NCBI GenBank assembly: GCA_005877505.1 | Contig: VBOO01000018.1 | Location: forward strand, 1 to 36,582 | Direction of reading: 5' to 3' | Origin: Nitrospirota bacterium | GTDB taxonomy: Bacteria > Nitrospirota > Nitrospiria > Nitrospirales > NS-4 | Length of the DNA: 36,582 bases | Shown: positions 12,811 through 35,820 of the stretch, piece after piece | How positions within the stretch are numbered: position 1 is the first letter of the stretch | How the letters are laid out: each line of letters begins with the position of its first letter | Program-made: the position numbers and the translations under genes | The notes under the pieces: model-generated | What the model was told of the DNA's origin: nothing | Databases searched by the model: none | What the model saw: only the letters and a program-made list of their open reading frames with translations

Positions 12811-12838
12811 GTAGGGGCACGGCGCGCCGTGCCCCTAC
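12811..12838. repeat. 28-bp perfect palindrome, copy 2
   Basis: Perfect palindrome GTAGGGGCAC...GTGCCCCTAC centred on GGCGCGCC, the same unit as at 3519-3540. The proC stop codon lies inside it. It could act as a transcriptional stop between proC and the radical SAM gene, but there is no clear T run. Confidence 0.9.
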
Positions 12839-13650
12839 CCCTCCCCTAATTCACGGGAGCGCTTCGTCGCGGCTTCGACGGCCTCGATCAGCGAAGCCCG
12901 CAGGCGGCCGTGCTCGAGCGCGTGCAGGCCGGCGATGGTCGTGCCTCCCGGAGACGCTACCTTGTCCTTCAGCGTTCCAGGGTGCTCCCCGGTCTCCAGG
13001 ACCATCCGCGCCGCGCCCAGCACGGTCTGCGCGGCCAGGGCCAGGGCTGCCTCGCGCGGCAACCCCATCTTCACACCCCCGTCGGCGAGCGCTTCGATGA
13101 TCAGAAAGATGTAGGCCGGCCCGCTCCCGCTGAGACCGGTCACGGCGTCCATGAGGCGCTCGTCAACCAGCACGACCTTGCCGACCGACTCGAAGACCGC
13201 GCGGGCCAGCTGCTCATCCTCGCGCGAGAGGTTCCCGCCGAGGGCGATCGCCGAGACCCCGGCCTGGACTTCGGACGGAGTGTTCGGCATGCAGCGGATG
13301 ACCCGGACACTCGGTGACAGGTGCGCGACGATTCGGCGGATCGGATAGCCGGCGGCCACCGAGAGGATCAACTTCGCCTCGGTCAGCACGGAACGAAGGT
13401 CGTCCAAAACAGAATCAAACACTTGAGGTTCGACCGCTAAGATTGTGATATCTGACCAGACCGCCGCGGCCTTGTTGTCCATCCCGACCCGGATCTGATA
13501 CCGGGCTTTGAGGTGATCCAGGCGCTGGGCCAAGATGTCGGTCGCGTGGATGTCGTCCGGCGAGGCTGCCTTGGCGGCCAGCATCCCAGCAATTAGGGCC
13601 TCGCCCATGTTGCCGGCGCCGATGATGGCGATCTTCTTCCCGAGGGCCAT
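12835..13650 (-). CDS. proC: Pyrroline-5-carboxylate reductase
   Basis: Last step of proline synthesis: NAD(P)H reduction of 1-pyrroline-5-carboxylate. 271 aa, the usual length. The N-terminal Rossmann motif is GAGNMGEALIAG (residues 11-22). RCMPNTP is present. The C-terminal signature includes GLSGSGPAY and the helical region ending KVASPGGTTIAGLHALE. The final residues GEG and the stop codon are supplied by the 28-bp palindrome at 12811-12838. It is the last gene of the seven-gene minus-strand run, 6 bases after the 66-aa gene. Confidence 0.95.
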   Translation of the reverse strand: MALGKKIAIIGAGNMGEALIAGMLAAKAASPDDIHATDILAQRLDHLKARYQIRVGMDNKAAAVWSDITILAVEPQVFDSVLDDLRSVLTEAKLILSVAAGYPIRRIVAHLSPSVRVIRCMPNTPSEVQAGVSAIALGGNLSREDEQLARAVFESVGKVVLVDERLMDAVTGLSGSGPAYIFLIIEALADGGVKMGLPREAALALAAQTVLGAARMVLETGEHPGTLKDKVASPGGTTIAGLHALEHGRLRASLIEAVEAATKRSRELGEG

Positions 13651-22086: not shown

Positions 22087-22644
22087 ATGCCGCAAGCGTC
22101 GCCGGCGGACATCGGCCGGGAGCTCTCCGACCTGGCCTTCGGCATTGTCGAACAGAACTGGCTGGAGCAGCACATCGGCAAGGTGATGGACTTGAAGAGC
22201 CTCGACCAGCTTCAGCTCAACGTCGCGGAGTGGGAGCTCACCTATCTCATCCTGTTCGCCATCACCAACGGGTGCGGTACGTTTTCCTCCGCGGACTCCG
22301 AGCGCACGACGGCCATCCTCAAGGCGTTTCACTCGGCGCTCCTCTCCCACATCGCGGAGCAGGCCGGACAGGAGGTCGCCGAGGAGCACAAGAAACACCT
22401 GCCCGCCCGGTACCGGCTGTATGGACAGGCGATCGAAGGCGAGGACACGACCAAACCCTATAAGACCCCCTACCGACTGCTCGGAGAGGCAGCCGCGCTG
22501 CAGATACTGGGGAAACCGCTCACGGACCCACACGACGGCGACAACTTCCGCGAGACGATCAAAGTGATCTTTACCGAGGTGCGTGAGGCGGCGATCAAGG
22601 TCCTGAGCTTCCAGCAGGCTCAGGCAATCGAAGGGAAGGCGTAA
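22087..22644 (+). CDS. Hypothetical protein, 185 aa
   Basis: Soluble, mainly helical, no signal peptide and no motif I recognise. It has an acidic N-terminal half (ELSDLAFGIVEQNWLEQHIGKV), a hydrophobic helix around WELTYLILFAITNGCG and a basic centre (EEHKKHLPARYRLY). It follows the 67-aa gene by 3 bases and precedes the 142-aa gene by 9, so the three are almost certainly one operon and may form one complex (inference). Confidence 0.65.
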   Translation: MPQASPADIGRELSDLAFGIVEQNWLEQHIGKVMDLKSLDQLQLNVAEWELTYLILFAITNGCGTFSSADSERTTAILKAFHSALLSHIAEQAGQEVAEEHKKHLPARYRLYGQAIEGEDTTKPYKTPYRLLGEAAALQILGKPLTDPHDGDNFRETIKVIFTEVREAAIKVLSFQQAQAIEGKA

Positions 22645-22653
22645 GCGTAAGGC

Positions 22654-23082
22654 ATGGACTTCGACATCGGCTCCAATCACTACCGGAACGCGGCGCCCAG
22701 CATCGAAATCGAAGGCATGCCGCACCTCTCGTTCGAACACAATCGTCGCTACAACGAGATGACGTTGAGGGGGTTTCTCTACGACACGAAAGGCAACCTG
22801 GTGGGGAAGATCGTGGAAAGCAGCCTCGCTATGAACGTCCAAGGCGAATTCGAGATGCGCTCAGAGCCCTTGGTCGTGAAGGTGCTGAGACGCGAGACCG
22901 AGGAGGTCATCTTGGAAGTGAAGTTCCTGGACAAGAACCGCGTCCAGATCCACAAGGCCAAGCTGTACTCCATCAAAGGCCGCCCCTTCGAGGCGACCCC
23001 GAAGCACTGGAAGATCGGCGACGACCCGCCCCACAGCGGAGAAGACATGGACTGCGGCAGCAACGCGGTCTCGCTGAAATGA
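22654..23082 (+). CDS. Hypothetical beta-rich protein, 142 aa
   Basis: Strand-rich sequence (MTLRGFLYDTKGNLVGKIVESSL, then EEVILEVKFLDKNRVQIHKAKLYS). This resembles small beta-barrel or right-handed-strand modules, but no family is recognised. It has no signal peptide. It is the last gene of the three-gene unit; a palindromic repeat region begins 15 bases after its stop. Confidence 0.65.
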   Translation: MDFDIGSNHYRNAAPSIEIEGMPHLSFEHNRRYNEMTLRGFLYDTKGNLVGKIVESSLAMNVQGEFEMRSEPLVVKVLRRETEEVILEVKFLDKNRVQIHKAKLYSIKGRPFEATPKHWKIGDDPPHSGEDMDCGSNAVSLK

Positions 23083-23097
23083 ATCTTGTCGCGGGTG

Positions 23098-23250
23098 GGG
23101 CACCCGTTGCTCTTTGAGCGGGTCCTGCCTCCGCATAGCCCAGCGCATCTGGGCGTTTCGCCGTCGAGGCCCCGCAGACCCGGCTGTACGCCCCGTGCTG
23201 CATCTGGGCGCCCATGCGGCGTCACCCGCTCAATTGCAACGGGTCGAAAC
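23098..23250. repeat. Complex palindromic repeat; left boundary of the protease-nuclease cassette
   Basis: ACCCGTTGC...TGAGCGGGT at about 23102-23123 is repeated in inverted form at 23224-23244, making a large imperfect palindrome. Within it, 23156-23232 is a 77-base unit (TTTCGCCGTCG...CACCCGCTCA) whose inverted copy lies at 24646-24722 on the other side of the two-gene cassette. A further partial copy of the unit start (ACGCCGTCGCAGCCCCGC) follows at 23249-23267. Confidence 0.75.
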
Positions 23251-23347
23251 GCCGTCGCAGCCCCGCGGACATCGCGCTTCGATCTCGGCAGCCGTAACAC
23301 AGACACTTGAGCCAATAAAGTTGCAAGGGCGCCATCGGTTGCAAGTG

Positions 23348-24121
23348 TTAGATAGCAACCCCATTTGCGCGTGCAAATGAGACGATGTCAACCGAAGGCA
23401 CCCAGAGTGAAATTGCCAAACGGGCTGTGAGCCTTGTGGCCCCCTTGTTCTGTATCTGATTCGCTCCTTCGATGACAGAGGCCACATGCATGCCGAACAC
23501 CAGAGTGTCAGCAAGAAAACCAGGACAGCCTGAAGATCCCGAATACATGAGCGCATCTGTTTCGTAAAAGTCCAGGGCACGACCTGAAGGATGCTGCTGC
23601 GTATGAAAGGCCGAGACGTTAGCGCCTTGGAATCGTTCGGTCAGATTGACCACACGCCCAACAGGGTTGAACACCACACTCGCTAGTGGAAAACCCAGCG
23701 AACCACAACTTGTCCCAATGGGGACCCTGGCCGTGTTCAGCGCTACTGTCACGGACGAGCGCGGATTTTGTAAACGTAGGAGCGCAACGTCTCGCACTCT
23801 GTCTTCGGCGATCAAGGATGCACGCTCCATCGGTTGACCAATGTCTGGGGCACGGATAGCTTCAAACTGCGTGTGAACCGGCTTAGTTGGATCGTTCTCA
23901 ACGTGAACAAAGTGTGCCGCCGTCACAAGAACGCCAGGCGAAATCATGAATGCGGTGCCGTTGGTTGCATTGACCTGGTTCGGCGCGACTTGGGAGACGC
24001 CCAACACGCCGTACACGGATGCGCGAACCGTCGCAGAACTCTTCGCGAACAAGTGTCCCTCTCGCTGATTGTCTAACTTGAATTGAGTTGGCGAACTGTC
24101 GAGTTTTATTACTCTGCCCAA
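23348..24121 (-). CDS. Trypsin-like serine protease (cytoplasmic)
   Basis: 257 aa with no signal peptide. The chymotrypsin-fold triad is visible: His70 in VTAAH, Asp111 in RDVALLRL, and Ser197 in SGSSGCPGF, the GxSG nucleophile site. The N-terminal 50 residues are not obviously part of the protease. It starts 10 bases after the nuclease-like gene, in the same orientation. The DNA is visibly poorer in GC and different in codon use from its neighbours, and the pair is framed by inverted 77-bp repeats, so horizontal acquisition is likely. Stand-alone intracellular trypsin-like proteases are known effectors in bacterial conflict systems (family knowledge); that role here is inference. Confidence 0.85.
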   Translation of the reverse strand: MGRVIKLDSSPTQFKLDNQREGHLFAKSSATVRASVYGVLGVSQVAPNQVNATNGTAFMISPGVLVTAAHFVHVENDPTKPVHTQFEAIRAPDIGQPMERASLIAEDRVRDVALLRLQNPRSSVTVALNTARVPIGTSCGSLGFPLASVVFNPVGRVVNLTERFQGANVSAFHTQQHPSGRALDFYETDALMYSGSSGCPGFLADTLVFGMHVASVIEGANQIQNKGATRLTARLAISLWVPSVDIVSFARANGVAI

Positions 24122-24131
24122 AACGTTTCTT

Positions 24132-24554
24132 TTAGTCCCTCTCCGCCCACACGCGCCATGAGGTCTTCTTATAAGTACCCTTATCCGTGTTGATGATCCA
24201 GATTTCCAATTCCGGAAAGGCTTCAGCTAGACGTTTCCAGGCAACGCGGTGCTGTTTGGCCCTAGCAGGAAGGCCGGTTTCCGACTTATGGGAAAGCGCG
24301 AGGACAAGATGCTTGGCTTCATCGTTGAGACGAGAAACCACTCGGAAAAAGCCCTCATAAAAGTCCTTGGCTCTAGCAGGGCCAGTCTCCTTATAACCTA
24401 TGACTTCGATGTAGTAAGCCGTCTCCCCCTTTCTTGCCACAATGTCAACTCCGGTCTGACCATGCTCTCTTCTGGGAGTCAGAGCAAAGTCATCGCGTTC
24501 AAGTATCCCCTGAAGGCATTCCTCTACTTCGACATTAGCCACAGACTTTGGCAT
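24132..24554 (-). CDS. PD-(D/E)XK-like nuclease family protein
   Basis: 140 aa. The core G-V-D-I (Asp37) followed 13 residues later by Y-Y-I-E-V-I-G-Y-K (Glu50) matches the Mrr/restriction-endonuclease-like fold D...ExK. The canonical lysine position is Ile52, and Lys55 may replace it. An N-terminal helix with EVEECLQGILERDDF and the pattern RREHGQTGVDIVAR also fit this fold. The C-terminal half (KDFYEGFFRVVSRL, LALSHKSE, ELEIWIINTD) looks like a conserved accessory part. It is the upstream gene of the protease pair. A stop codon 9 bases before the ATG fixes the start at or after 24554; no clear ribosome-binding site is seen. Confidence 0.75.
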   Translation of the reverse strand: MPKSVANVEVEECLQGILERDDFALTPRREHGQTGVDIVARKGETAYYIEVIGYKETGPARAKDFYEGFFRVVSRLNDEAKHLVLALSHKSETGLPARAKQHRVAWKRLAEAFPELEIWIINTDKGTYKKTSWRVWAERD

Positions 24555-24614
24555 TTGTGATCATCAATTTTTTGTTCTTTGAATCCTCTGGAGCGTACAT
24601 CGAACTCTCGGAAA

Positions 24615-24642
24615 AATCTATCGACGCTGGGGAGATGTCCAA
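24615..24642 (-). promoter_or_regulatory. Weak promoter candidate for the cassette
   Basis: On the minus strand TTGGAC (24642-24637), 16 bases, TAGATT (24620-24615), just inside the right-hand inverted repeat and about 60 bases before the nuclease ATG. Confidence 0.3.
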
Positions 24643-24645
24643 GGC

Positions 24646-24722
24646 TAAGCGGGTGGCGCCGCATGGGACCCGGGCGGAGCGGAAGAGCCTACAGCCGAGT
24701 CTGCGGGGCTGCGACGGCGAAA
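24646..24722 (-). repeat. Right inverted copy of the 77-bp repeat
   Basis: Read on the minus strand it aligns without gaps to 23156-23232. The outer 33 and inner about 28 bases are nearly identical (shared GCCCCGCAGAC, CGGCTGTA, CCCATGCGGCG, CACCCGCT), and the middle is diverged. Confidence 0.75.
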
Positions 24723-24770
24723 GGATCTGAGCACGTCCGGGTGATGCGGTGACAGGACCCGCAACCAGAG

Positions 24771-25574
24771 CTACTTCGCCGATTGGGCGCAGCGGAAGCC
24801 GATGAAGGCGTTGCGGGTCTCCGGCGCAAGCTTGGAGGTGCGGCTGCCTGATAAGAGATACACCGGCATGTCGGACCACGAGCCGCCCCGCACCATCCTG
24901 TACTGACCAGTTCGCGGCCCCTGGGGGTTATTCTCGGGGCTCTCTCTGTAGTATTCGCCGTCATACCAGTCCTGGACCCATTCCGCGACATTCCCAGCCA
25001 GATCGAAGGCCCCGTACGGCCCTTGACCTCCTGGATAGCTGCCGACGGGCTTAAGAAGATCGTAAGAGAATTTGCTCATCTGTCCGAACAGAGCCAGCGT
25101 GGCGCTTGGTTTGGTCTCCCCCCAGGGAAACGGCCGCTCGTTCGTCCCGCGGGCGGCCTTCTCCCACTCAGCCTCGGTCGGAAGCCGCCGCCCGTTGATC
25201 CGGCAGTAGGCGTCGGCATCGACCCAGGTCACTCCGACGACAGGACGATTGGAATGGTCAGGAAACTTGACCAGGTCCCAGTTCAACGGCTTCTGCCATC
25301 CCGCGAATTCAAGGAACTTGGCGTACCGTTCCGTCGTGATCTCGTACCTATCGAGATAGTACGCGTCCAGGTACACCTTGTGGCGGGGCTGCTCGTCGTC
25401 CAGCCCCAGACCCTCAGGCAGCCCCATCCAGAATTCCCCGGCCGGCACCAGGACCATGGGCGAGCCGTCCTTGGCGATGATTTCCTTCGTCAGGTCACCC
25501 TCCGCTGCCATCGCCAACGAGAGGCCAGCCGCTAGCAGAAACACGACCACCCATGTCAGCTTCGGGATCCGCAT
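24771..25574 (-). CDS. Exported formylglycine-generating-enzyme-like (SUMF1-family) protein
   Basis: 267 aa from ATG 25574, with a signal peptide (TWVVVFLLAAGLSLAMA|AE). The FGE-sulfatase fold is recognisable by PMVLVPAGEFWMG, DAYYLDRYEITTERYAKF, INGRRLPTEAEWEKAARG, PFPWGE, DLAGNVAEWVQDWYD, YRMVRGGSW and the final GFRCA. True formylglycine generation needs a specific Cys pair; only the Cys in GFRCA is evident, so this is probably one of the many family members with another or no enzymatic role. No sulfatase gene is nearby. The gene ends 48 bases before the right repeat of the protease-nuclease cassette. Confidence 0.88.
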   Translation of the reverse strand: MRIPKLTWVVVFLLAAGLSLAMAAEGDLTKEIIAKDGSPMVLVPAGEFWMGLPEGLGLDDEQPRHKVYLDAYYLDRYEITTERYAKFLEFAGWQKPLNWDLVKFPDHSNRPVVGVTWVDADAYCRINGRRLPTEAEWEKAARGTNERPFPWGETKPSATLALFGQMSKFSYDLLKPVGSYPGGQGPYGAFDLAGNVAEWVQDWYDGEYYRESPENNPQGPRTGQYRMVRGGSWSDMPVYLLSGSRTSKLAPETRNAFIGFRCAQSAK

Positions 25575-25592
25575 CAACTGAACGATGAATGA

Positions 25593-25623
25593 TGAATTCT
25601 GAATTCAGCATTCTGCATTCTGC
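25593..25623. repeat. Short AT-rich reiterated motif
   Basis: GAATTCTGAATTC followed by two tandem GCATTCT units, in the leader of the FGE-like gene. No function is evident. Confidence 0.4.
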
Positions 25624-25628
25624 GTTTC

Positions 25629-25637
25629 AGTCTAGCA
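25629..25637 (-). promoter_or_regulatory. Extended -10 candidate for the FGE-like gene
   Basis: On the minus strand TGCTAGACT, an extended -10 form, about 55 bases before the ATG; no good -35 box is seen. Confidence 0.3.
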
Positions 25638-25725
25638 CACGCCCCGCTTGACTTCATGGCACCCTGCTCATATAGTGACTCCACTCCTCATGCACGTGCG
25701 CTCCGAACACCTCACTCCATAACCC

Positions 25726-27714
25726 TTGGCGCGGTTCCCTTTCCAATCCGTGCGACGTGCCGGGCGCCTCTGCGCTATTGCCATGCTCGTGGCCGGCCTG
25801 TTCCTGACAGGCCGCACGCCGCTCGATGCACAGCCAAAGCCCGCCCCGTCCAAGGCCGAGGAGGAGGTCAAGGTCCAGATCGACACGGCCAGGGCCTTGG
25901 TCGAGGAAGGCAAGACTGACGCGGCGGTCGAGGCCCTTCAGAAAATCATCGCGGCCTCGCCACAGAGCGAGCACATCCCCGAGGCCTATCTCCTGCTCGG
26001 CAAGGTCCTGATCGACCAGAAGAATTACGAGGAGGGCGGCGCGTTCTACCGGCGTCTCCTAGAGGAATACCCGAGTTCCGAATTGAGGCCACAGGCCCGA
26101 CTCGGATTGATCGGGACCCTGCTCCTGACTGGGCAACTGAATGCCGCGCTGCCCCTCCTGCTTGAAGCCAAGGGTCAGACAACGGACCCGGCCGTAAAGC
26201 GGATCGTGCTTCGGCAACTGGAAGAGGTCTACCTCGCCAACCAGGACTATGTCCGGATGGTGGAGACCGCCCTCGAGACCCGCGCGCTCGCTTCCGAACA
26301 GGAACGGCGCCAGATTGAGCAGCGCGTCGCCGAGACCCTCAAAACGAGAGTCGGCGAGAAGGACCTCCGTCACTTCGTGGACAAGAATCCCCGCACGTTC
26401 CCGTCTGATATTGCGCTGCTGCGGCTGATCGAGCTCTACGGGTCGGCCGGCGAAGATTACAAGCTAGCCAGGGCCGCCCGCGATTTCCTGACCCAGTTCC
26501 CTCTGCACGAGCAGGCCGCCTCCGTCGAGGCCATCCTGTCCGCGCAACGGAAGAAGCTCAAGAGCATGGCGTACCGCATCGGCGCCCTGTTGCCCCTCTC
26601 GGGCGAATTGAGCCCGTACGGCACCGACGTGCTGAACGGCATCCAGACCGCCTTCGACCAGACGACCGCGGCCATCCCGCAACTGGCGGTGGGCCTCGTC
26701 GTCAAGGACACCGAGGGCGATGCGAAGGTCCTCGACTCCGAGCTCCAGGACCTGCTGAGAGAGTACCAGCCGATCGCCGTGATCGGCCCGTTGCTGAGCC
26801 GCGAGGTGAAGGCCGTGGCGGTCGCCGCGGATGCCAATGAAGTGGTCTTCATCACGCCGACAGCCACTCTCGCCGACGTGCAGCGCATCAGCCAGTACCT
26901 GTTCAACACCGCCGTCAACAGCCGCGCCCTCGTGCGGGACCTCGCCGCCTATGTGACCGGCCCGCTGGGCTGGAAACGCTTCTGCATCCTCGCCCCGCGG
27001 GACCAGTACGGCGCGGAGATGACCCAAGCCTTCGGAGAAGAAATCCGCCGCCTCGGCGGGGAGATCATCGCCGTCGACACGTACGGACCCGATGATAACG
27101 ATTTCGGCCCCCCTCTCAAGCGCATCAAGGAGGCCGACCTCAAGCGCTACGGCAAGATGGAGTCTCCCCCGACCCCGCCACAGAAGTCTCCACCAACCCC
27201 GCCTCAGAAGAAAGGCCCCAAGGAGACCAAGATCTATGTCCCCGGGTTCGACGCGATCTTCCTCCCCGGCGAGGCCCAGAAAGTGAGCCTGATCGCCGGC
27301 CAGATTCGGTTCTATGCGGCCAAGGTGGGCCTCCTGGGGACCAATGGGATGAACACGCCGGACTTGCTCCGCTTCGACGCCCGCGCGGTCGAGGAGGCCA
27401 TCTTCGCGGACAGTTTTTTCGTGGACAGCCCGGACCCCACCGTGCGAAACTTCGTCGAGCAGTACCAGAAGCGCTTTCAGCAACCCCCCACGGCCTTTGC
27501 CGCGCAGGCCTATGAAGCCACCATGCTTGTTCTGGATGGTATACTGAAGGGAGCGACGACGGGCCGCGCCCTCAGGGAGAGCATCATGAACGTCAAGAAC
27601 GCGCCCGGTCTCACTGGGCCGTTGACCATGAACCCGGCGGGATACTTGGAACGGCACTACGCGCTGATTCAGGTCAAGAACGGCGGCCTCGTGCCGCTGA
27701 TGGACATGCGATGA
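25726..27714 (+). CDS. PBP-activator-like protein: TPR plus periplasmic-binding fold
   Basis: 662 aa. An N-terminal export signal (CAIAMLVAGLFLTG) is followed by TPR-like helices (about residues 45-200: GKTDAAVEALQKIIAASPQSEHIPEAYLLLGKVL) and a type I periplasmic-binding domain (about 285-650: IGALLPLSGELSPYGTDVLNGI, VIGPLLSREVKAVA, GFDAIFLPGEAQK). This is the layout of LpoA-like penicillin-binding-protein activators and of branched-chain amino acid receptors; with TPRs and no ABC transporter nearby the former fits better. The start is uncertain: TTG 25726 opens the frame, but GTG 25750 (VRRAGR) would give a more usual signal peptide. Around residues 482-500 a proline-rich tandem (SPPTPPQK twice) interrupts the domain. 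The stop overlaps the next start (ATGA). Confidence 0.8.
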   Translation: MARFPFQSVRRAGRLCAIAMLVAGLFLTGRTPLDAQPKPAPSKAEEEVKVQIDTARALVEEGKTDAAVEALQKIIAASPQSEHIPEAYLLLGKVLIDQKNYEEGGAFYRRLLEEYPSSELRPQARLGLIGTLLLTGQLNAALPLLLEAKGQTTDPAVKRIVLRQLEEVYLANQDYVRMVETALETRALASEQERRQIEQRVAETLKTRVGEKDLRHFVDKNPRTFPSDIALLRLIELYGSAGEDYKLARAARDFLTQFPLHEQAASVEAILSAQRKKLKSMAYRIGALLPLSGELSPYGTDVLNGIQTAFDQTTAAIPQLAVGLVVKDTEGDAKVLDSELQDLLREYQPIAVIGPLLSREVKAVAVAADANEVVFITPTATLADVQRISQYLFNTAVNSRALVRDLAAYVTGPLGWKRFCILAPRDQYGAEMTQAFGEEIRRLGGEIIAVDTYGPDDNDFGPPLKRIKEADLKRYGKMESPPTPPQKSPPTPPQKKGPKETKIYVPGFDAIFLPGEAQKVSLIAGQIRFYAAKVGLLGTNGMNTPDLLRFDARAVEEAIFADSFFVDSPDPTVRNFVEQYQKRFQQPPTAFAAQAYEATMLVLDGILKGATTGRALRESIMNVKNAPGLTGPLTMNPAGYLERHYALIQVKNGGLVPLMDMR

Positions 27715-28430
27715 ACCACATCGGTCTGATCATCCATACGATCTCATACATGGCGCTCCCGCTGCTCCTGGCCATGGTCTTCCACGAGTACGCGCACGGA
27801 TGGGTCGCCGACCGCTACGGCGATTCCACGGCTCGCCTGGAAGGGCGGCTGACACTCAACCCCGTCGCGCACATCGATCCGTTCGGGACGATCCTGCTGC
27901 CGTTGCTGTGTCTGATCTTTCCCTCCGGCATCCTGCTCGGCTACGCCAAGCCGGTGCCGGTCAACGCCTGGAACCTGCGCCATCCGCGCCGCGACATGGC
28001 GCTGGTGGCCGCCGCGGGGCCCGGCATGAATCTGCTCCTGGCCATCGCGAGCGCCGTCGCGCTCAGCGCCATCCTGGCCATTGACCCGTCCGTCGCCGAT
28101 TCCCTCTCCGCCAGCGGGCCCGGCGTCCGGAGAGACCTGCTCGGCATGTTCCTGGTGCCCCTGGCTTGGATGTGCTGGTATTCGGTCATCATCAATGTGG
28201 TACTGATGGTTTTCAACTTGATCCCCATCCCGCCGCTGGACGGCGGGCGGATCATGGTCAGCCTCCTCCCCCCGCGCCAGGCCGAAACGCTCAGCCGCCT
28301 GGAGCCCTACGGGATGCTCATCATTTTCTTCCTCGTCGTCGCCGATCCGCACATCCATCTGTTCGGGATGGTGATGGGCCCCCTGGTCCACGCGCTGACG
28401 AACACGATCTTCTCGACATTTACGTCGTGA
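27711..28430 (+). CDS. Site-2 protease family (M50) membrane metalloprotease
   Basis: 239 aa, about five to six membrane helices. HEYAHGW (about residues 24-30) supplies two zinc ligands and the catalytic Glu; NLIPIPPLDGGRI (near residue 165) supplies the Asp ligand. There is no PDZ domain, so it belongs to the short M50B group found beside trpS, scpA or rluB in many bacteria. Its substrate is unknown. The ATG overlaps the stop of the upstream activator-like gene, and trpS starts 18 bases after its stop. Confidence 0.9.
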   Translation: MNHIGLIIHTISYMALPLLLAMVFHEYAHGWVADRYGDSTARLEGRLTLNPVAHIDPFGTILLPLLCLIFPSGILLGYAKPVPVNAWNLRHPRRDMALVAAAGPGMNLLLAIASAVALSAILAIDPSVADSLSASGPGVRRDLLGMFLVPLAWMCWYSVIINVVLMVFNLIPIPPLDGGRIMVSLLPPRQAETLSRLEPYGMLIIFFLVVADPHIHLFGMVMGPLVHALTNTIFSTFTS

Positions 28431-28448
28431 ATCGGATAGACACGCGCC

Positions 28449-29432
28449 ATGGCTAAACGCGTCGTGAGCGGAATGCAGCCGAGCGGTTTGTTGCACCTGG
28501 GGAACCTGTTCGGCGCGCTCGACAACTTCATGCGCCTGCAGGCCGAACATGAGTGCTTCTACTTCGTCGCCGACTGGCATGCGCTCTCGACGAACTACGA
28601 GGACACCGCCCGCATCCGGGAATACACCCGCGAGGTCCTCATCGACTGGCTGGCCACGGGCCTCGACCCCGGGCGCTCGACGCTCTTCATTCAGTCCCGC
28701 GTCCCGGAGCATGCCATCTTACATCTGCTCCTCTCCATGATCACGCCGGTGCCGTGGCTGGAGCGGAACCCCACGTACAAGGAGAAACAGGAGAACCTTG
28801 AAGGACGCGACCTGTCCACCTACGGCTTTCTCGGCTACCCTGTCCTGCAGACCGCGGATATCCTGTTATATAAGGGAGACTACGTGCCGGTGGGTGTGGA
28901 CCAGCTTCCCCATCTCGAGCTGACGCGGGAGATCACCCGGCGCTTCAACGCCCTCTACAAAACGGTATTTCCCGAGCCCCAGGCCCTCCTGACAGAGATC
29001 CCGAAGGTCCCCGGCACGGACGGCCGGAAGATGAGCAAGAGTTACAACAATACGATCAACCTCTCGGACACCGAGGCGACGGTCCGCGCCAAGCTCAAGA
29101 CCATGGTGACCGATCCCGCCCGCGTCCGGCGGACGGACAAGGGCAACCCGGACGTCTGCCCGGTCTTCACGGTCCACAAGTCGGCGTCTCAACAAGCCGT
29201 CATCGACCGGGTGAACAAGGAGTGCCGGACGGCCGAGATCGGGTGCATTGATTGCAAAGGGCTGCTCGCAGATGCGCTGGTGGCCCGCCTCACGCCGATC
29301 TGGGAGAAACGGCGGGAGCTCGTGCAGATGCCGAAGCTCGTTGACGAGGTGATTGCCGCGGGGACCACGAAGGCGAGCGCCGTCGCCCGCCAGACCATCG
29401 CGGAAGTGAATGCAGCGATGAGGATGGGGTAA
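28449..29432 (+). CDS. trpS: Tryptophanyl-tRNA synthetase
   Basis: Charges tRNA-Trp. 327 aa, usual length. The class I HIGH equivalent is HLGN at residues 16-19 (GMQPSGLLHLGN), the KMSKS loop occurs as GRKMSKSYNN near residue 195, and VADWHAL, GYPVLQTADILLY and VGVDQLPHLELTREI form the tryptophan and ATP site. It sits in the plus-strand run M50 protease-trpS-BamE-like. Confidence 0.96.
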   Translation: MAKRVVSGMQPSGLLHLGNLFGALDNFMRLQAEHECFYFVADWHALSTNYEDTARIREYTREVLIDWLATGLDPGRSTLFIQSRVPEHAILHLLLSMITPVPWLERNPTYKEKQENLEGRDLSTYGFLGYPVLQTADILLYKGDYVPVGVDQLPHLELTREITRRFNALYKTVFPEPQALLTEIPKVPGTDGRKMSKSYNNTINLSDTEATVRAKLKTMVTDPARVRRTDKGNPDVCPVFTVHKSASQQAVIDRVNKECRTAEIGCIDCKGLLADALVARLTPIWEKRRELVQMPKLVDEVIAAGTTKASAVARQTIAEVNAAMRMG

Positions 29433-29444
29433 CAGTGACAGGCC

Positions 29445-29789
29445 ATGAAGCGGATCGCGCTTGCGGGCATGTTGATGATGAGCCTCGGGCTCCTCGGACC
29501 CGCCGAGCCTGCGCTGGCAGTCACGGACTCCCAGGTCTCTCCGGGTATCGATCGGCACGATCCTCCCGTCAGGCGGCTCCCCGGCGAGATCACCTTCGAG
29601 ACCTACCGGATGCTCTCCACGGGCACCACCGAGGCAGAGATCCTCACCCGCGCGGGCCAACCGCGCTACACCTTCCGGATCGCCCGTGGCACCTGGGTGT
29701 GGGTCTATCTGAACGACGAGTGGCTCGTGGAGGTGACCTTCTCCGGCGGCCGCGTCGCCAACATCAGCCGCTACCGCCCCAAGCCCTAG
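29445..29789 (+). CDS. Small exported BamE/SmpA-like protein
   Basis: 114 aa. The signal peptide (ALAGMLMMSLGLL...PALA|V) is followed by about 90 residues. The C-terminal half reads as the short alpha-alpha-beta-beta-beta fold of SmpA/OmlA (BamE-like) proteins: TEAEILTRAGQPRYTFR, a W-V-W-V-Y strand, and EVTFSGGRVANISR. There is no lipobox cysteine, so it is not a typical BamE lipoprotein and is probably periplasmic. It starts 12 bases after the trpS stop. Confidence 0.7.
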   Translation: MKRIALAGMLMMSLGLLGPAEPALAVTDSQVSPGIDRHDPPVRRLPGEITFETYRMLSTGTTEAEILTRAGQPRYTFRIARGTWVWVYLNDEWLVEVTFSGGRVANISRYRPKP

Positions 29790-29813
29790 TGCCCCTCGGC
29801 TTCTCTCCTGTGC

Positions 29814-29842
29814 TTGTCGAAGAGCCGTCCCTGGGCTACAAT
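29814..29842 (+). promoter_or_regulatory. Promoter for the PEBP gene
   Basis: TTGTCG (29814-29819), 17-base spacer, TACAAT (29837-29842), 37 bases before the ATG. A GGAGG ribosome-binding site is at about 29868-29872. Confidence 0.55.
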
Positions 29843-29879
29843 CCGATCGTCCCGAAACCCACTCTGAGGAGGTCACGCC

Positions 29880-30335
29880 ATGGAACTCAAAACCTCAGCG
29901 TTTGAGGCCGAAGGGATGATCCCCAAGAAGTACACGTGTGATGGACCGGACGTGTCCCCGCCCTTGAGCTGGTCCGACGTTCCGGCAAGGGCCAAGAGCC
30001 TGGCGCTCATCGCCGACGACCCGGATGCGCCGATGGGCACCTGGGTGCATTGGGTGGCGTGGAACATCCCACCGCACGCGCGAGGCCTCGAGGAAGGGGT
30101 GCCGAAGAAGGACTCGCTTCCGAACGGGATGAAGCAAGGGACGACGGATTTTCGCAGCATTGGCTACGGCGGCCCCTGCCCGCCATCCGGGACTCACCGC
30201 TACTTCTTCAAGTTGTACGCGCTCGACACCGGCCTGAACCTGCCGTCGAGCACGACCAAGAAGGATCTGGAGAGAGCGATGCAGGGACACATCGTGCAAC
30301 AGGCCGAGCTCATGGGCCGGTACGCCCGGAAGTAG
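29880..30335 (+). CDS. YbhB/YbcL-type phosphatidylethanolamine-binding (PEBP) protein
   Basis: 151 aa, usual length, cytoplasmic. The family anion-binding site is present: DGPDVSPPLSW, DDPDAPMGTWVHWVAWNIP, and YGGPCPPSGTHRYFFKLYALD. Cellular function of the bacterial members is not established. A fragment of this gene's 3' end recurs at about 33069-33090, at the junction of the downstream duplication. Confidence 0.92.
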   Translation: MELKTSAFEAEGMIPKKYTCDGPDVSPPLSWSDVPARAKSLALIADDPDAPMGTWVHWVAWNIPPHARGLEEGVPKKDSLPNGMKQGTTDFRSIGYGGPCPPSGTHRYFFKLYALDTGLNLPSSTTKKDLERAMQGHIVQQAELMGRYARK

Positions 30336-30387
30336 GGGAGAGGCCAGGTCAAAAATCATCTGTCAAGAAAGCCGGAGGGGAATAACG

Positions 30388-30669
30388 ATGGCGCGCCTCA
30401 AGCTGCAAGGAAAGGAATACCATCTGGAGAAAGAGGACATTGTCAATGCGGTCAAGAGGTTTGAACCTCAGCCAACACACGATTTCACGATCAGTATCGA
30501 TGGGACCTATTACCCCATTAAACAGGCGATCAGCGCCGCCACGGGGCTCCCGATCGAAACGTTCTCAGGCTCCGAAGCCCATGAATTCCTGCGAAAGCTC
30601 GGCTTTGTCATCGAGAATTACGAGCAGCGCATGCGAAAGCGTAAGAAAAGAAAAAGTCTCCACTTTTGA
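30388..30669 (+). CDS. Small basic protein, copy 1 (intact), function unknown
   Basis: 93 aa. An N-terminal sheet (ARLKLQGKEYHLEKEDIVNAV) is followed by ISIDGTYYPIKQAISAATGLP and a helix-turn region (SGSEAHEFLRKLGFVIENYE), then a basic tail. The Y-P-x-K-Q...F-x-S-x-x-A...L-R-K-L-G-F pattern resembles a small domain seen attached to some HNH-type nucleases; the match is weak. It has a good ribosome-binding site (CCGGAGGGG). It is followed 47 bases later by the receiver/coiled-coil gene. A truncated copy is at 33233-33328 before the second copy of that gene, so the two genes were duplicated as a pair. Confidence 0.7.
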   Translation: MARLKLQGKEYHLEKEDIVNAVKRFEPQPTHDFTISIDGTYYPIKQAISAATGLPIETFSGSEAHEFLRKLGFVIENYEQRMRKRKKRKSLHF

Positions 30670-30716
30670 TCCAGACCTTTCCCCTTGGCTCCCGCCTGAC
30701 AAAGTTTGAGGTGGTC

Positions 30717-31721
30717 ATGTCAGACATACCTCCTTTGAATGTCCTCATCGCCAACGAGCAGGCTCAAGATGCCAAGGACGTGACTTCGAGTCTGCGTGCA
30801 TTTTTTCCTGACAGCCGGATTGAGGTGGTGTACTCCGCAGACGAAGTGCTGCGCTGGGCAGCCAAGTGTGAGTGGCATACTATCCTTGCTGATGTGGGCT
30901 TATTCCGTCACAGTGGGCTTGGGACGCTGACCGAGCTCAAACGAAAAGCACCAACGGCAATTCTTATTATTCAAGCCGATTGCAACGACATGACACTTGG
31001 CATGCAAGTTCTGCGCTTTGGCGCAGATTTTTGCGTAGCGAAGAACTCTCCTGCATTTTTGACTGAATTGCCCTTTGTCCTGCGAACACTGTTGAGGAAT
31101 CAAGAGCTAAGCGCGCAGGTGAATGCAGCGACAGATCGAGTCCGGCGCCTGGAGGAGAAAGTGTCACGCACGCAGGCGGAACGGCAGTCCCTCGTTGAGC
31201 AACTCGACCAAGTACGCCAACAGCGCACACAGTTGCAGGGACGCCTTCACAGCCAAGAAGTTGAGTTATCGCAGACAAAAGAGAAGAAGCAACTGCTCCT
31301 GGACCAATGGGAGAAGATCCGCCAAGCGCACACTCAGGTGGAAGAAGATCTCCAGCGGGTGACAGGGCAGTTGTCTCAGGAACGTGGAGAACACCGGGCA
31401 TACAGGGAGCAGCTTGAGAGGCTCCGACAAGAGCGCGACCAGTTGCAAGAACGACTGCTCCATATAGAGGGGGAGAAACAGTCGCTCCTGACACAGTTGG
31501 GACAAACGCGGCAAACGTATGCGCGGTTGGAGGAAGGACTCCAGCGCCACGACGCAGAGCTGTCTCTTGAACGGACCGAAAAGCAGGCGTACAGGGAGCA
31601 GCTCGAGAAGCTCCGCCAAGAACGGGACCAGCTGCAGGAGCGACTGTCGCAGACCGAGATGGGAAAGCAGTCACTCCTCACCCGGACATACCCCGGCACA
31701 GGAACAAATCCAGCGCCTTGA
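30717..31721 (+). CDS. Degenerate receiver domain plus coiled coil, copy 1 (frameshifted)
   Basis: Residues 1-125 resemble a response-regulator receiver. The acidic pocket reads A-N-E instead of D-D, Asp59 is kept (ILADVG), the Thr/Ser switch position is Gln86 and Lys109 is kept (VAKN), so normal phospho-switching is doubtful. The rest is a long coiled coil built from a tandem unit of 63 residues (nine heptads; AYREQLE-x-LRQERDQLQERL at 31397 and again at 31586). The frame ends early in TRTYPGTGTNPAP, while another frame continues the coiled coil to 32034 with the same C-terminal motif as the intact paralogue. A single-base frameshift near 31680-31700 is therefore likely. ATG 30717 aligns with the paralogue start. 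Confidence 0.75.
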   Translation: MSDIPPLNVLIANEQAQDAKDVTSSLRAFFPDSRIEVVYSADEVLRWAAKCEWHTILADVGLFRHSGLGTLTELKRKAPTAILIIQADCNDMTLGMQVLRFGADFCVAKNSPAFLTELPFVLRTLLRNQELSAQVNAATDRVRRLEEKVSRTQAERQSLVEQLDQVRQQRTQLQGRLHSQEVELSQTKEKKQLLLDQWEKIRQAHTQVEEDLQRVTGQLSQERGEHRAYREQLERLRQERDQLQERLLHIEGEKQSLLTQLGQTRQTYARLEEGLQRHDAELSLERTEKQAYREQLEKLRQERDQLQERLSQTEMGKQSLLTRTYPGTGTNPAP

Positions 31722-32034
31722 AGAGCAATTGTCTCAGGAGCGTGGGCAACAACAGACCTCCTCAGAGCAGCTCGAAGCGCTGCGACAAGAGCGCGCACAG
31801 ATGCTGGGCGATCTGGCCAATATCCAGGAAGAAAGGCAGTACTTGCTGCACCAGGTGGAGAATGAAGTTCAAGAGCATGCCCAGGCGCTGGAACAGCTGG
31901 CCCAGCTCCAAGGAGAAAAACAGTCTTTACTGGAGCAATTGGAGGAAATGAGTCGAACACGCCAACAGATGGAAGAACGAATCAAGCGCCTCGAAGAGCG
32001 GCTGCTTCAGGAACATCGGCAAAAATTGCCCTAA
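31691..32034 (+). pseudogene. Displaced C-terminal part of copy 1 coiled-coil protein
   Basis: Out of frame with 30717-31721. It reads AQEQIQRLEEQLSQERGQQ through RQQMEERIKRLEERLLQE and ends at 32034. The final motif MEERIKRLEERLLQE is identical to the end of the intact copy (33347-34213), showing that it belongs to the upstream gene. Confidence 0.75.
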
Positions 32035-32054
32035 CTGAAATCTTTGAGTCTGTG

Positions 32055-33011
32055 ATGCCGCAACAACACGAGGACAGGCTTGCGAGAAGACTCATCCTGG
32101 ATGAGCTCTTCGACCTGTCGCTGTACAAGGCCCTCCGCGACCTGACGGAAGGCGACGTTCAGGGGATCCTCAACGAGCTCATCCAGGTCGAGACCACCCA
32201 CTTCGCCTTCTGGCAGGACTTCTTCACCCTCCAGCTCACCACCCTCGATCTTCCGCGTCGCCTCAAGCTCCGGGGCATCATTCTGGCGTGCCGCCTCTTC
32301 GGCACACCCGCCATCCATCTAGTCCTGCAAGCCATTGAGGTCTACGGCGTGCGGAAATACCTGACGCTCTGGAAGTCCTACAAGGACGGGCCGCTGGGCG
32401 CGGCGGTCAAGGACGTCCTGGTGGATGAATTCAAACACGAGGACACGGTCGTTACCACACTAACGGAACGAAAAATCAATCCGGAGAGAATCCGCAACAT
32501 CTTCTTGGGCATGAACGACGGTCTGGTCGAGATCTTAGGGGCGGTCAGCGGCTTCTTCGGGGCCTTCGGCGATGCGGTCACCGTCCTCATCGCCGCCTCC
32601 ACCACAGCCGTGGCTGGATCGCTCTCAATGGGCGCCGGCATCTATGTGGCGACCAGCTCCGAGAAGGAAATCAAAGAAACGGAGGCGGCCAAACAGCAAT
32701 TCCTCGGGGCGGATATGGTCGCGGCCGAGAGGGAAGAGCAGCCGCTCGGCTCCGCGCTCATCGTGGGCGGCAGTTATATAGCCGGGGCCATGGTTCCGGT
32801 GCTGCCGGTCCTGTTCGGCGCAAAGGATGTGTTGCCCTCGCTCCTGACGGCCGGCAGCATGATCATCCTGGTATCCATGGTGCTGGCGTTCCTCTCCGGC
32901 ATGGAGGTCAAAAGACGCATCCTTACGAACCTGGTCATCATCGCCTGCGCGGTGGCCATCACCTATGCAATTGGCCTTGTGGCCAAGACCCTCTGGGGCG
33001 TCTCGGTCTGA
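32055..33011 (+). CDS. Ferritin-like/VIT1-type iron or manganese transporter
   Basis: 318 aa. Residues about 1-140 form a rubrerythrin/ferritin-like helical domain with metal-ligand-type motifs (DELFDLSLYKAL, VETTHFAFWQ, VLVDEFKHEDTV). Residues about 150-318 are a CCC1/VIT1 membrane domain (GMNDGLVEILGAVSGFFGAF, AGSLSMGAGIYVATSSEKE). This fused layout is known from MbfA-type membrane-bound ferritins that export iron (family knowledge). ATG 32055 is preferred to the GTG just before it. It lies between copy 1 of the receiver/coiled-coil gene and the duplication junction, and has no counterpart in the second copy. Confidence 0.88.
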   Translation: MPQQHEDRLARRLILDELFDLSLYKALRDLTEGDVQGILNELIQVETTHFAFWQDFFTLQLTTLDLPRRLKLRGIILACRLFGTPAIHLVLQAIEVYGVRKYLTLWKSYKDGPLGAAVKDVLVDEFKHEDTVVTTLTERKINPERIRNIFLGMNDGLVEILGAVSGFFGAFGDAVTVLIAASTTAVAGSLSMGAGIYVATSSEKEIKETEAAKQQFLGADMVAAEREEQPLGSALIVGGSYIAGAMVPVLPVLFGAKDVLPSLLTAGSMIILVSMVLAFLSGMEVKRRILTNLVIIACAVAITYAIGLVAKTLWGVSV

Positions 33012-33022
33012 CGCGACCCCAA

Positions 33023-33103
33023 GTTTCTTTCTTTTCAAATACATCTTCGCCACATCCAGCCGGGCATGATGGGCGAGTACGCCAGGAAGTAGGTAAAAAG
33101 CCA
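33023..33103. other. Duplication junction: TPR-gene fragment joined to PEBP 3'-end fragment
   Basis: 33023-33069 matches 34347-34393 inside the TPR gene (47 bases, two mismatches, same orientation; encodes HARLDVAKMYLKRKK on the minus strand). It runs straight into about 33069-33090, which resembles the end of the PEBP gene (GTACGCC-GGAAGTAGG near 30320). This is what a tandem duplication of the PEBP-end-to-TPR segment would leave. The rest of 33104-33232 shows no gene. Confidence 0.65.
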
Positions 33104-33232
33104 AAATAAAATAGTCGACATTTGTCTGGTTTTGTCGTACCATGTCATGGGGTTTCCAGAAATACTGGTCTCGCTCCAAGATACTGAGGCCAAGCCCCAA
33201 TCCCCTCTCAAGAAAGCGGGAGTGAACGAAAA

Positions 33233-33328
33233 ATGGCGCATGTCAAGCTGCGTGGCAAGGAATACCACGCAGAGAGAGAGCATATTGTGAAGACGCCCAC
33301 AGTTGTAATCCACCTGGCTACCACCTAA
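33233..33328 (+). pseudogene. Small basic protein, copy 2, truncated
   Basis: MAHVKLRGKEYHAEREHIVK aligns with the first 20 residues of the 93-aa protein at 30388, then diverges and stops after 31 codons. The upstream leader (CAAGAAAGC-GGAG) is also similar. About two thirds of the gene is missing. Confidence 0.75.
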
Positions 33329-33346
33329 CACATTGGGAGGTTGATC

Positions 33347-34213
33347 ATGTCAGACATAAGTCCCATCAATATCCTCATCGCCAACGAGCAGGCGCAAGAA
33401 GCCAAGGAAACTGCTTTGAGTCTGCGTGCATTCTTTCCCGAGAGCCGGATTGAGGTGGTGTACTCAGCCGACGAAGTGCTCCACTGGGCAGCCAAATCTG
33501 AGTGGCATACGATCCTTGCTGATGCTGACTTATTTCGTCAGAGTGGGCTGGCGATGCTGACCGAGGTCAAACGGCAAGCGCCTAAGGCAACCATCATAAT
33601 TCAAGCCGATTGCAACAATATGACTCTGGGAACGCAGGTCCTCCAATATGGTGTCGATTTTTATATCGCGAAGAACACTCATGCCTTTTTAAGTGAATTG
33701 CCCTTCGTGCTACGAGCATTTTTGAAGAATCAAGATCTGAATTCGCGGTGGAATGCCGCGAACGAGCGAGTCCTGCGCCTAGAGGAGCAAGTGTCACGAA
33801 TGCAGACGGACCAGCAATCCTTAGTTGAGCACCTCGATCAAGCACGTCTGGAGCGTACCCAGCTGCAGGAACAACTTCAAGCCTACGAAGTTGAGTTATC
33901 GCAGACCAAGGAGAAGAAACAATTGCTTCTGGACCAATGGGAAAAAATCCGCCAAGCGCACGCGACGATGGAGGAAGAATTCCAGCAGGTGACAGGGCAG
34001 TTGACTCACGAACGAGGAGAAAACCAGGCTTACCGCGAGCAGCTTGAGATGCTGCGGCAAGAGCGCGACCAGCTCCAGGAGCAGGTGTCGCTGCTCCAGA
34101 TGGAGAAGCAGACGGTCCCCGCCCAATTGCAGCAAATGCGTCTTGGTCATACACAGATGGAAGAACGGATCAAGCGCCTCGAAGAACGGCTGCTGCAGGA
34201 ACAGCGAGGCTAA
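33347..34213 (+). CDS. Degenerate receiver domain plus coiled coil, copy 2 (intact)
   Basis: 288 aa from ATG 33347, which has a strong GGGAGG ribosome-binding site. Same layout as copy 1: receiver-like residues 1-125 with A-N-E in place of the acidic pair, Asp59 kept (ILADAD), Gln at the switch position (IIIQAD), Lys109 kept (IAKN). It is followed by about 160 residues of coiled coil with fewer repeat units than copy 1. No DNA-binding or enzymatic output domain is present, so it would act as an adaptor or scaffold if functional (inference). The C-terminal motif MEERIKRLEERLLQE is shared with copy 1. Confidence 0.8.
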   Translation: MSDISPINILIANEQAQEAKETALSLRAFFPESRIEVVYSADEVLHWAAKSEWHTILADADLFRQSGLAMLTEVKRQAPKATIIIQADCNNMTLGTQVLQYGVDFYIAKNTHAFLSELPFVLRAFLKNQDLNSRWNAANERVLRLEEQVSRMQTDQQSLVEHLDQARLERTQLQEQLQAYEVELSQTKEKKQLLLDQWEKIRQAHATMEEEFQQVTGQLTHERGENQAYREQLEMLRQERDQLQEQVSLLQMEKQTVPAQLQQMRLGHTQMEERIKRLEERLLQEQRG

Positions 34214-34218
34214 TTGCT

Positions 34219-34935
34219 CTAATTGGCGTGGTTCAGTGACTCAAGGAGCCGCTCCGCCTCGGGACGGTATTCCTTGGCCCACGCGTAGGGGTCCCTGGGA
34301 CGATCCATGTTCACGATGGCGAGCAGCTCGCGCTTCGCGAAGTCGGGTTTCTTTCTTTTCAAATACATCTTCGCCAGATCCAGCCTGGCATGAGTGTAGC
34401 TGGGATCCAATTTCACCGCTCGTTCCAGGTACTCGAGGGCGGCTTCGGGATTGCCTCCCATAAACCGGGGCAGTTCCTCCAGCATCATCCCTGCCATATG
34501 GATCGCGGGAACGTGATCCTTTTGCAGCTCGAGAGCCCGGGTCACGTGCCGCCTCATCTCCTCCAAGCTCAGCAAGGACGCCGTCACCCCATTCAGTTCT
34601 GCCGCCTTCCCGAGGGCGGCGGCGTACAGGAAGTGGGCTTCCGCGTCAGCCTCCTTCAGCTCTAGGGCGCGCTGCGCCAGGCGGGCTGCTTCTTCGTAGG
34701 CCCTAATCCGTTTCTCGTCGCCGGTCAGAAGATCATTGCCCATGTCGAAGTACGTGCCGGCAAGCTTCAGCAAGAAACTTGGGTCCGAGGACTTCTGCGA
34801 TTGAACCTCAAGCAAGGCGGCGAGTTCCCGTTCAAGGGACTGAGGGTAATCCGGAGGCACCGTGGGAGAACCCGCGAAGACTGAGAGAGCCATCAGAACG
34901 ACGAGCGCGCAGACCGCGCACACTCGCATCGGCAC
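34219..34935 (-). CDS. Exported TPR-repeat protein
   Basis: About 238 aa. Signal peptide (MRVCAVCALVVLMALSVFAG), then TPR-like helices: AYEEAARLAQRALELKEADAEAHFLYAAAL, LQKDHVPAIHMAGMMLEELP, ALEYLERAVKLDPSYTHARLDLAKMYL. Start choice: GTG 34935 lies 8 bases after GGGAGG; ATG 34929 would be 14 bases away. It is probably a periplasmic scaffold. It begins 21 bases after the stop of the hydrolase gene, so the two are likely co-transcribed. A 47-bp piece of this gene is duplicated at 33023-33069. Confidence 0.8.
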   Translation of the reverse strand: MPMRVCAVCALVVLMALSVFAGSPTVPPDYPQSLERELAALLEVQSQKSSDPSFLLKLAGTYFDMGNDLLTGDEKRIRAYEEAARLAQRALELKEADAEAHFLYAAALGKAAELNGVTASLLSLEEMRRHVTRALELQKDHVPAIHMAGMMLEELPRFMGGNPEAALEYLERAVKLDPSYTHARLDLAKMYLKRKKPDFAKRELLAIVNMDRPRDPYAWAKEYRPEAERLLESLNHAN

Positions 34936-34956
34936 GTCTTTCGCCTCCCTCACCGC

Positions 34957-35820
34957 CTACTTCCCCGCCGGCTTGATCCTCTTCCCTTCGAAGGCAATCG
35001 TTTCGCCCGGGTGCAGTTGCCGGAACGGAACGCCTTGCTTTTTGAGCGCCTGACGGAACAGTGTGGCGTCCTGCGCCAGGACCGGGAACGTCATGAAGTG
35101 CATCGGGATCGCCAGCTTCACCCTCACGCTGGCCGCCGCGCGCGCCGCCATCTCCGGTTCCATCCCGAAGTGCCCGCCGATGTTGATCAGGGCCACGTCC
35201 GGGGCGTAGTGTTCGCCGATGAGGTCCATGTCCTTGAAGTACGCGGTGTCCCCGGAATGATAGATCGTGGGCCCGTTCCTGATCTTCAGGATGAACCCGG
35301 CGGCGACGCCGCCCGTGGCTAACTCCGGCTCCTGCTCCTTGTCCTTGGCAAAGGGATTCCCCAGACCGCTCGAGTGCACGGCCGGCGTCATCGCCACCAC
35401 GACCTCGCCGTCGGCAATCGTGATCTCCCCGCCGATGTTCATCAGGGTGTCGAAGCCCATCTGCTCCTTGGGATAGCCGAGCAGCTTTGCCATGTTCGTG
35501 CCCAGCTCGAAGTTGGTGATCAGGCGCGCGCCGGTCTTCTTCGCAATCGCCACGGCATCCCCGACGTGGTCGAAATGGCCATGCGTGATCAGGATGTAAT
35601 CGGCCTTCTTGAGGTCCGCCAGCGGATCGCCTTTGTCCTTGGCCTTGAGATTCACCGGGTTCGTGAGCCATGGGTCGATCAAGAGCACCACGCCGTTGGG
35701 CGTCGCGATCTCAAAGGCCGCATGGCCGTGCCAGGTCAGGGTGGTCAATGACGCGGCGTTGGCGCCCGATGCGACCAGCGCGATCATTCCGAGCAGCGCG
35801 ACCCCGAGTTTGCGTATCAT
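34957..35820 (-). CDS. Exported metallo-beta-lactamase-fold hydrolase (UPF0173-like)
   Basis: 287 aa from ATG 35820, which has an AGGAGG site 6 bases upstream; an in-frame start at 35913 lacks one. Signal peptide MIRKLGVALLGMIALVASGANA. Zinc motifs: HGHFDHVGDA (HxHxDH), TPAVHSSG, the bridging Asp in YHSGDTAYF, and a C-terminal MHFMTFP His. UPF0173-like enzymes are usually cytoplasmic; the export signal is unusual. Substrate unknown. Confidence 0.87.
   Translation of the reverse strand: MIRKLGVALLGMIALVASGANAASLTTLTWHGHAAFEIATPNGVVLLIDPWLTNPVNLKAKDKGDPLADLKKADYILITHGHFDHVGDAVAIAKKTGARLITNFELGTNMAKLLGYPKEQMGFDTLMNIGGEITIADGEVVVAMTPAVHSSGLGNPFAKDKEQEPELATGGVAAGFILKIRNGPTIYHSGDTAYFKDMDLIGEHYAPDVALINIGGHFGMEPEMAARAAASVRVKLAIPMHFMTFPVLAQDATLFRQALKKQGVPFRQLHPGETIAFEGKRIKPAGK

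What the first reader, a model, noticed from the sequence alone, without database searches (positions are those of the whole stretch)
30388..34393. Tandem duplication of a small-protein/pseudo-receiver pair with a preserved junction
The 93-aa gene and the receiver/coiled-coil gene occur twice in order. At 33023-33090 a fragment of the downstream TPR gene joins directly a fragment of the upstream PEBP 3' end, the scar expected of a tandem duplication of the segment from PEBP end to TPR gene. Later events removed most of the second small gene, and the VIT1-type gene is in one copy only (inserted or lost).
Basis: seen in the sequence. Interest (0 to 1): 0.55.

Follow-up and report, generated by a model that had tools for sequence, protein, structure and literature searches.

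The report
Two divergent gene-cassette versions in tandem
A soil Nitrospirae bacterium carries two old, already different versions of the same small gene block side by side, joined by a young seam, so what looks like a gene duplication is better explained by a related species' version being added next to the resident one.

Summary
The repeat is real. Unit 1 (PEBP 3' end, 93-aa gene, receiver/coiled-coil gene, VIT1-type gene) is followed at 33023-33103 by a TPR fragment fused to a PEBP 3' end, then a second receiver/coiled-coil gene with a small-gene remnant. Congener G003 has a single PEBP-small-receiver-VIT1-TPR unit ("A"). G001 has a single PEBP-remnant-receiver-TPR unit without VIT1 ("B"). 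G002 has the same two units and the same seam.

"One segment duplicated, then decayed" does not fit. Copy 1 groups with G003, copy 2 with G001 and G002's copy 2 (100% support; sister copies rejected, p-AU 6e-5). Copy-copy dS is 0.60, larger than between species in flanking genes (0.18-0.41). Yet the seam's TPR fragment matches its source at 43-45 of 45 bases, so the seam is far younger than the split of the copies. VIT1 and the small gene were most likely missing or reduced in version B already. The seam block is also more similar between G000 and G002 (95-98%) than their background (about 88%), so it was probably exchanged between species. The A receiver copies carry independent frameshifts; the B copies are intact. 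Ordinary biology, but a clean, datable case.

The parts
29880..30335 (+). PEBP gene (PF01161), left border; its 3' end is the left edge of the repeated unit
   Evidence: Pfam E 1e-47; repeat D8
30388..30669 (+). 93-aa gene of unit 1 (allele A), weakly like SCO5918 family
   Evidence: 71-72% identical in G003; NCBIfam E 1e-5, below cut-off
30717..32034 (+). receiver/coiled-coil gene, copy 1 (allele A), frameshifted by a 20-nt deletion near 31686; frame ends at 31721
   Evidence: groups with G003
32052..33011 (+). VIT1-type gene, in unit 1 only; ancestral at this locus
   Evidence: PF01988 E 2e-24; G003, G006, G007
33012..33069 (.). fragment of the TPR gene (antisense), left half of the seam; good match from 33023
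33069..33103 (.). copy of the PEBP 3' end, right half of the seam; TGA microhomology at the join
33104..33198 (.). B-type leader, 97% identical in G002 and partly (78% over 55 nt) in G001; mostly absent from unit 1 of the window
33199..33340 (+). remnant of the 93-aa gene (about 20 codons from 33234) and receiver-gene upstream region in unit 2
33347..34213 (+). receiver/coiled-coil gene, copy 2 (allele B), intact, 288 aa
34219..34953 (-). TPR gene, right border; source of the seam fragment (34347-34393)

Best explanation
Two long-separated alleles of one locus (A: small gene, receiver/coiled-coil gene, VIT1; B: receiver/coiled-coil gene only) now stand in tandem. A B-type DNA segment, running from the 3' end of PEBP into the TPR gene, most likely entered a cell holding allele A. 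It recombined by homology in the TPR gene on one side and was joined with only a TGA overlap to the resident TPR fragment on the other, so it was added rather than swapped in. The resulting A-seam-B block was then passed between species by homologous recombination. In both two-copy genomes the A receiver gene has since been broken while B stays intact, which fits B taking over the function. Shown: the anatomy, the two alleles, the relative ages of seam and copies, the excess G000-G002 similarity, the frameshifts. Inferred: the order of events, the route (transformation or other) and the takeover of function. The protein itself is probably a coil-dimerised scaffold with a pseudo-receiver head; its partners are unknown.
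For: Tree of the first 720 nt: G000 copy 1 + G003 against G001 + G000 copy 2 + G002 copy 2, support 100/100; holding the two G000 copies together costs 150 log units, p-AU 6e-5. Receiver dS is 0.60 between the G000 copies against 0.18-0.41 between species in PEBP, VIT1 and TPR. Seam TPR fragment: 0 of 45 differences from its own TPR gene in G002, 2 of 45 in G000; about 13.5 changes expected if the seam were as old as the A/B split (P 1e-6 and 1e-4). G001 shows B alone, with the same receiver/TPR boundary and no VIT1. Exchange: G000-G002 identity 95-98% over 33101-34450 against about 88% background; dS 0.09 in the copy-2 receiver; outside the block G002 is closest to G003, inside to G000; informative sites 24:11 inside against 6:26 outside, p 6e-5. 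G002 copy 1 carries a G001-like stretch at 96-97%, so such DNA does enter that lineage. Independent 20-nt and 121-nt frameshifting deletions in the A copies; B copies and G003's A copy open.
Against: Only four genomes of the genus are held, all draft metagenome assemblies of 87-90% completeness. The seam fragment is only 45 nt, so its age rests on few sites. Direction of transfer and donor are unresolved: the one B-only genome, G001, is only 88% identical to copy 2. The G001 locus is split across two contigs inside the coil repeats. The informative-site test uses two different outgroups (G001 and G007).
Confidence: 0.68

Rival explanations
1. A true tandem duplication of allele A (A-seam-A) happened recently, and the second unit was then overwritten by an imported B allele, which removed its VIT1 and small gene.
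For: Gives the same end product and keeps the seam as a duplication scar; imports of G001-like DNA are seen in G002 copy 1.
Against: Needs two events, and the overwriting tract must begin within about 35 nt of the seam because the leader right after the PEBP stop is already B-like; no A-seam-A genome is held.
Confidence: 0.2
2. One reading: one tandem duplication in the ancestor of the genus, followed by divergence, and by loss of copy 2 in G003 and of copy 1 in G001.
For: Explains the A and B clades of the tree by vertical descent alone; tandem copies are easily lost.
Against: The seam TPR fragment is nearly unchanged (0-2 of 45) where 9-14 changes are expected; G003 keeps no seam between VIT1 and TPR; flank and block trees conflict.
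Confidence: 0.09
3. Assembly artefact: two strains' alleles joined into one contig.
For: All genomes are metagenome assemblies; alleles A and B both occur in the genus.
Against: The same seam, base for base apart from a few substitutions, is in two genomes that are about 88% identical overall.
Confidence: 0.02

Closest known systems
Merodiploids formed by natural transformation (PMC3784515) and homology-facilitated illegitimate recombination (reference 43 of that paper, not read)
   Same: Tandem arrangement with a novel junction made with incoming DNA that pairs by homology on one side; two alleles kept in one chromosome.
   Different: The pneumococcal cases use long repeats and were made in the laboratory; here the join has a 3-nt overlap, the alleles come from divergent lineages and the event is read from natural genomes. 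Competence is not shown; comEC and dprA families are present but are widespread, E. coli included.
FrzS of Myxococcus xanthus, pseudo-receiver plus coiled coil (PMC1974792, PMC12632262)
   Same: N-terminal receiver-like domain followed by an extended coiled coil, with no DNA-binding output seen.
   Different: FrzS lacks the phospho-acceptor Asp; here Asp59 and Lys109 are kept while the Thr/Ser position is Ala87 and the acidic pair is Asn13-Glu14. No sequence match to FrzS; no motility link shown.
SCO5918 family (NF038312), for the 93-aa gene
   Same: Similar length, aligned over residues 11-84, E 1e-5.
   Different: 25 bits against a curated cut-off of 60, so not a member by that rule.

Membership tests
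Simple tandem duplication | Two co-linear units and a junction joining the end of one to the start of the next | tested here: met
Simple tandem duplication | Copies are each other's closest relatives, or no more diverged than the junction | tested here: not met
   p-AU 6e-5; dS 0.60 against a nearly unchanged seam
Imported allele kept in tandem (merodiploid by recombination) | Each unit matches a different allele found alone elsewhere | tested here: met
   A in G003, B in G001
Imported allele kept in tandem (merodiploid by recombination) | Uptake route (such as transformation) demonstrated | not testable with these tools
   comEC and dprA families present in all four genomes, not diagnostic
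Receiver domain PF00072 | Profile score above the curated cut-off and receiver fold | tested here: met
   Copy 2: 32.3 bits, cut-off 30.2; copy 1: 27.5, below; model with alternating strands and helices, mean pLDDT 82
Pseudo-receiver (definition of PMC12632262) | At least one of the five active-site residues missing | tested here: met
   Ala87 at the Thr/Ser position in the alignment to 3rqi; Asn13 in the acidic pair, just after strand 1 of the model; Asp59 and Lys109 kept in all six copies
FrzS-like scaffold | Sequence homology to FrzS or a role in motility | tested here: inconclusive
   No solved-structure match to FrzS; role not testable here
SCO5918 family | Score above the curated cut-off of 60 | tested here: not met
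   25.4 bits

The most novel reading that the evidence does not exclude
The locus is under selection for changing or pairing alleles of a pseudo-receiver scaffold with variable coil length: species repeatedly swap or add cassettes here (mosaic G002 copy 1, shared A-seam-B block, 63-aa coil units gained or lost), so the protein would be a fast-exchanging determinant of some recognition or behaviour.
Probability: 0.12. Interest if true: 0.5.

Novelty: new member of a known kind. Interest (0 to 1): 0.3.

Why it matters
It is a natural case in which an apparent tandem duplication can be dated in two independent ways (the copies and the seam) and shown to be more probably the side-by-side addition of a foreign allele. 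If such cases are common, counts of 'gene duplications' in bacterial genomes include imports between relatives, and comparing seam age with copy age is a simple general test.

Tried and rejected
VIT1 as an insertion in unit 1: rejected, it is at or near trpS in the sister genus and present in G003. CARD-like fold for the 93-aa protein: two chains of a Lysobacter protease domain (identified from memory as CARD-like) match at E 7e-4 with the two-row profile, but over only 37 helical residues; not accepted. Structure of the 93-aa protein: model too poor (pLDDT 55), so no fold search was made. RNA element near the leader: no Rfam match in 22500-35000. PHROGs match for the small gene: none. Solved-structure relatives of the receiver profile: none at 1e-5; single-sequence search gives only ordinary response regulators at E 0.005 and weaker. 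Paper searches for tandem xenologs gave no direct precedent.

Full report
What was checked. A receiver/coiled-coil gene occurs at 30717-32034 and again at 33347-34213 (80% over 773 nt from 30680/33309). The start of the 93-aa gene and the DNA before it (30354-30446) recur at 33199-33291 (74%). Between the units, 33023-33069 matches the TPR gene at 34347-34393 (96%) and continues at 33069 into a copy of the PEBP 3' end (80%). The join reads GGCATGATGGGC; TGA can come from either parent in relatives (CTGATGGG in the PEBP gene of G001 and G002), so the overlap is three bases.

Related genomes. Four genomes of the genus are held, the window's included. Sample names look like a soil depth series; the Angelo grassland study (PMC6784897) is a plausible source but was not confirmed by accession. 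G003 has the single order PEBP, 93-aa gene, receiver gene of 446 codons, VIT1, TPR. G002 has two units and the same seam. G001 has PEBP, a small-gene remnant, a receiver gene with an expanded coil (contig break inside 189-nt repeats), then TPR, without VIT1. In the sister genus VIT1 follows trpS directly (G006) or after recQ (G007), so VIT1 is old at this place.

Two alleles. Over 720 nt of the receiver gene, G000 copy 1 is 88% identical to G003 but 80% to its own copy 2; copy 2 is 96% identical to G002 copy 2 and 88% to G001. The tree is fully supported and a sister relation of the two G000 copies is rejected (p-AU 6e-5). Synonymous divergence between the copies is 0.60, against 0.18-0.41 between species in PEBP, VIT1 and TPR. 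The copies therefore most likely separated before these species did, as alleles A and B. G002 copy 1 is a mosaic: A-like for about 240 nt, then 96-97% like G001 for the next 360 nt and 92% after that.

A young seam. The TPR fragment in the seam codes for nothing and should change freely. It is identical to the intact TPR gene in G002 (45 of 45) and differs at 2 of 45 in G000, while the same 45 bases differ by 2-7 between species. If the seam were as old as the A/B split, about 13.5 changes would be expected on the fragment's branch (P 1e-6 for none, 1e-4 for two or fewer); at genus age about 8.6 (P 2e-4 and 0.009). So an old pair of alleles was joined by a recent event. The leader after the seam is already B-like, and the receiver/TPR boundary without VIT1 is that of G001, so the missing VIT1 and reduced small gene most simply arrived with B. 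The small-gene remnants of G001 and of copy 2 differ in extent, so decay continued separately.

Spread between species. Across its contig G002 is closest to G003 at almost every tile, except from the VIT1 gene through the seam and copy 2 into TPR (about L031:6500-9250), where it is mostly closest to G000. Against G000 its identity climbs to 95-98% at 33101-34450 and falls to 88-93% on either side; the upstream background is about 88%. The untranslated leader and remnant share 228 of 237 bases. Informative sites change sides with the block (24:11 inside, 6:26 outside, Fisher p 6e-5). The A-seam-B block has therefore probably been exchanged between the two lineages; direction is open.

Fate of the copies. 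The A receiver gene is frameshifted in both two-copy genomes by different deletions (20 nt in G000; 121 nt in G002), while both B copies and the lone A copy of G003 are open. The G000 A unit also lost about 90 nt of leader, and the G002 A unit lost the small gene. This fits B taking over, but expression is unknown. The two B copies differ in length by 63 codons (288 against 351), that is one 189-nt unit of nine heptads, which keeps the coil in register.

What the protein is. The N-terminal domain matches PF00072 above cut-off in copy 2 and slightly below in copy 1. The model (pLDDT 82) shows the alternating strands and helices of a receiver, with the last helix running on as a 174-residue helix. 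Asp59 and Lys109 are kept in all six copies; the Thr/Ser position is Ala87 and the acidic pair Asn13-Glu14. By the rule in PMC12632262 (any of five residues missing) it is a pseudo-receiver. FrzS of Myxococcus is the closest known architecture, but FrzS lacks the Asp (PMC1974792) and no homology was found. In relatives of another family of the order (one named record is Nitrospira) the same domain, about 31-41% identical, heads proteins of about 1400 aa. A coil-dimerised scaffold is my inference.

Mechanism and precedent. Transformation with DNA that pairs in two places creates tandem merodiploids in pneumococcus (PMC3784515), and joining by one homologous and one illegitimate end is known as homology-facilitated illegitimate recombination (cited there as reference 43; not read). 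Both could give an added allele with a microhomology seam. comEC and dprA families are present in all four genomes, which is compatible but not diagnostic. Recombination is common in soil bacteria of a grassland meadow (PMC7305173).

Verdict. Observation confirmed; interpretation corrected. This is ordinary evolution of a known kind, useful because the relatives happen to preserve each allele alone and the seam allows dating.

Noticed in passing
window 23097-23271 and 24647-24763: A dispersed repeat of about 115-175 nt found on dozens of contigs in all four genomes at 75-99%, here as an inverted pair. The 1.4 kb between the copies (a trypsin-like protease-looking frame at 23348-24121 and a 140-aa endonuclease-looking frame at 24132-24554, both minus strand, judged by eye) is missing at the matching place in G003 and apparently in G002: possibly a repeat-flanked mobile cassette.
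   Followed up: partly
window about 9635-9707 and 12805-12845: Two further short repeat families (about 70 nt and 40 nt) with many copies across the genus.
   Followed up: no
L005, L008, L014, L071: Relatives in another family carry this receiver at the head of about 1400-aa proteins that by eye continue with PAS-like, kinase-like and PilZ-like parts and, in L071, a hydrolase-like end.
   Followed up: no
L032:3617-4053 and L063:5142-5647: In G001 the coil is expanded by 189-nt units at 95-96% identity and the assembly breaks there; unit number varies between alleles.
   Followed up: partly
L047 (G001:C171:10010-10735): The genome search reports one in-frame TGA in the TPR gene match of G001; not examined.
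   Followed up: no
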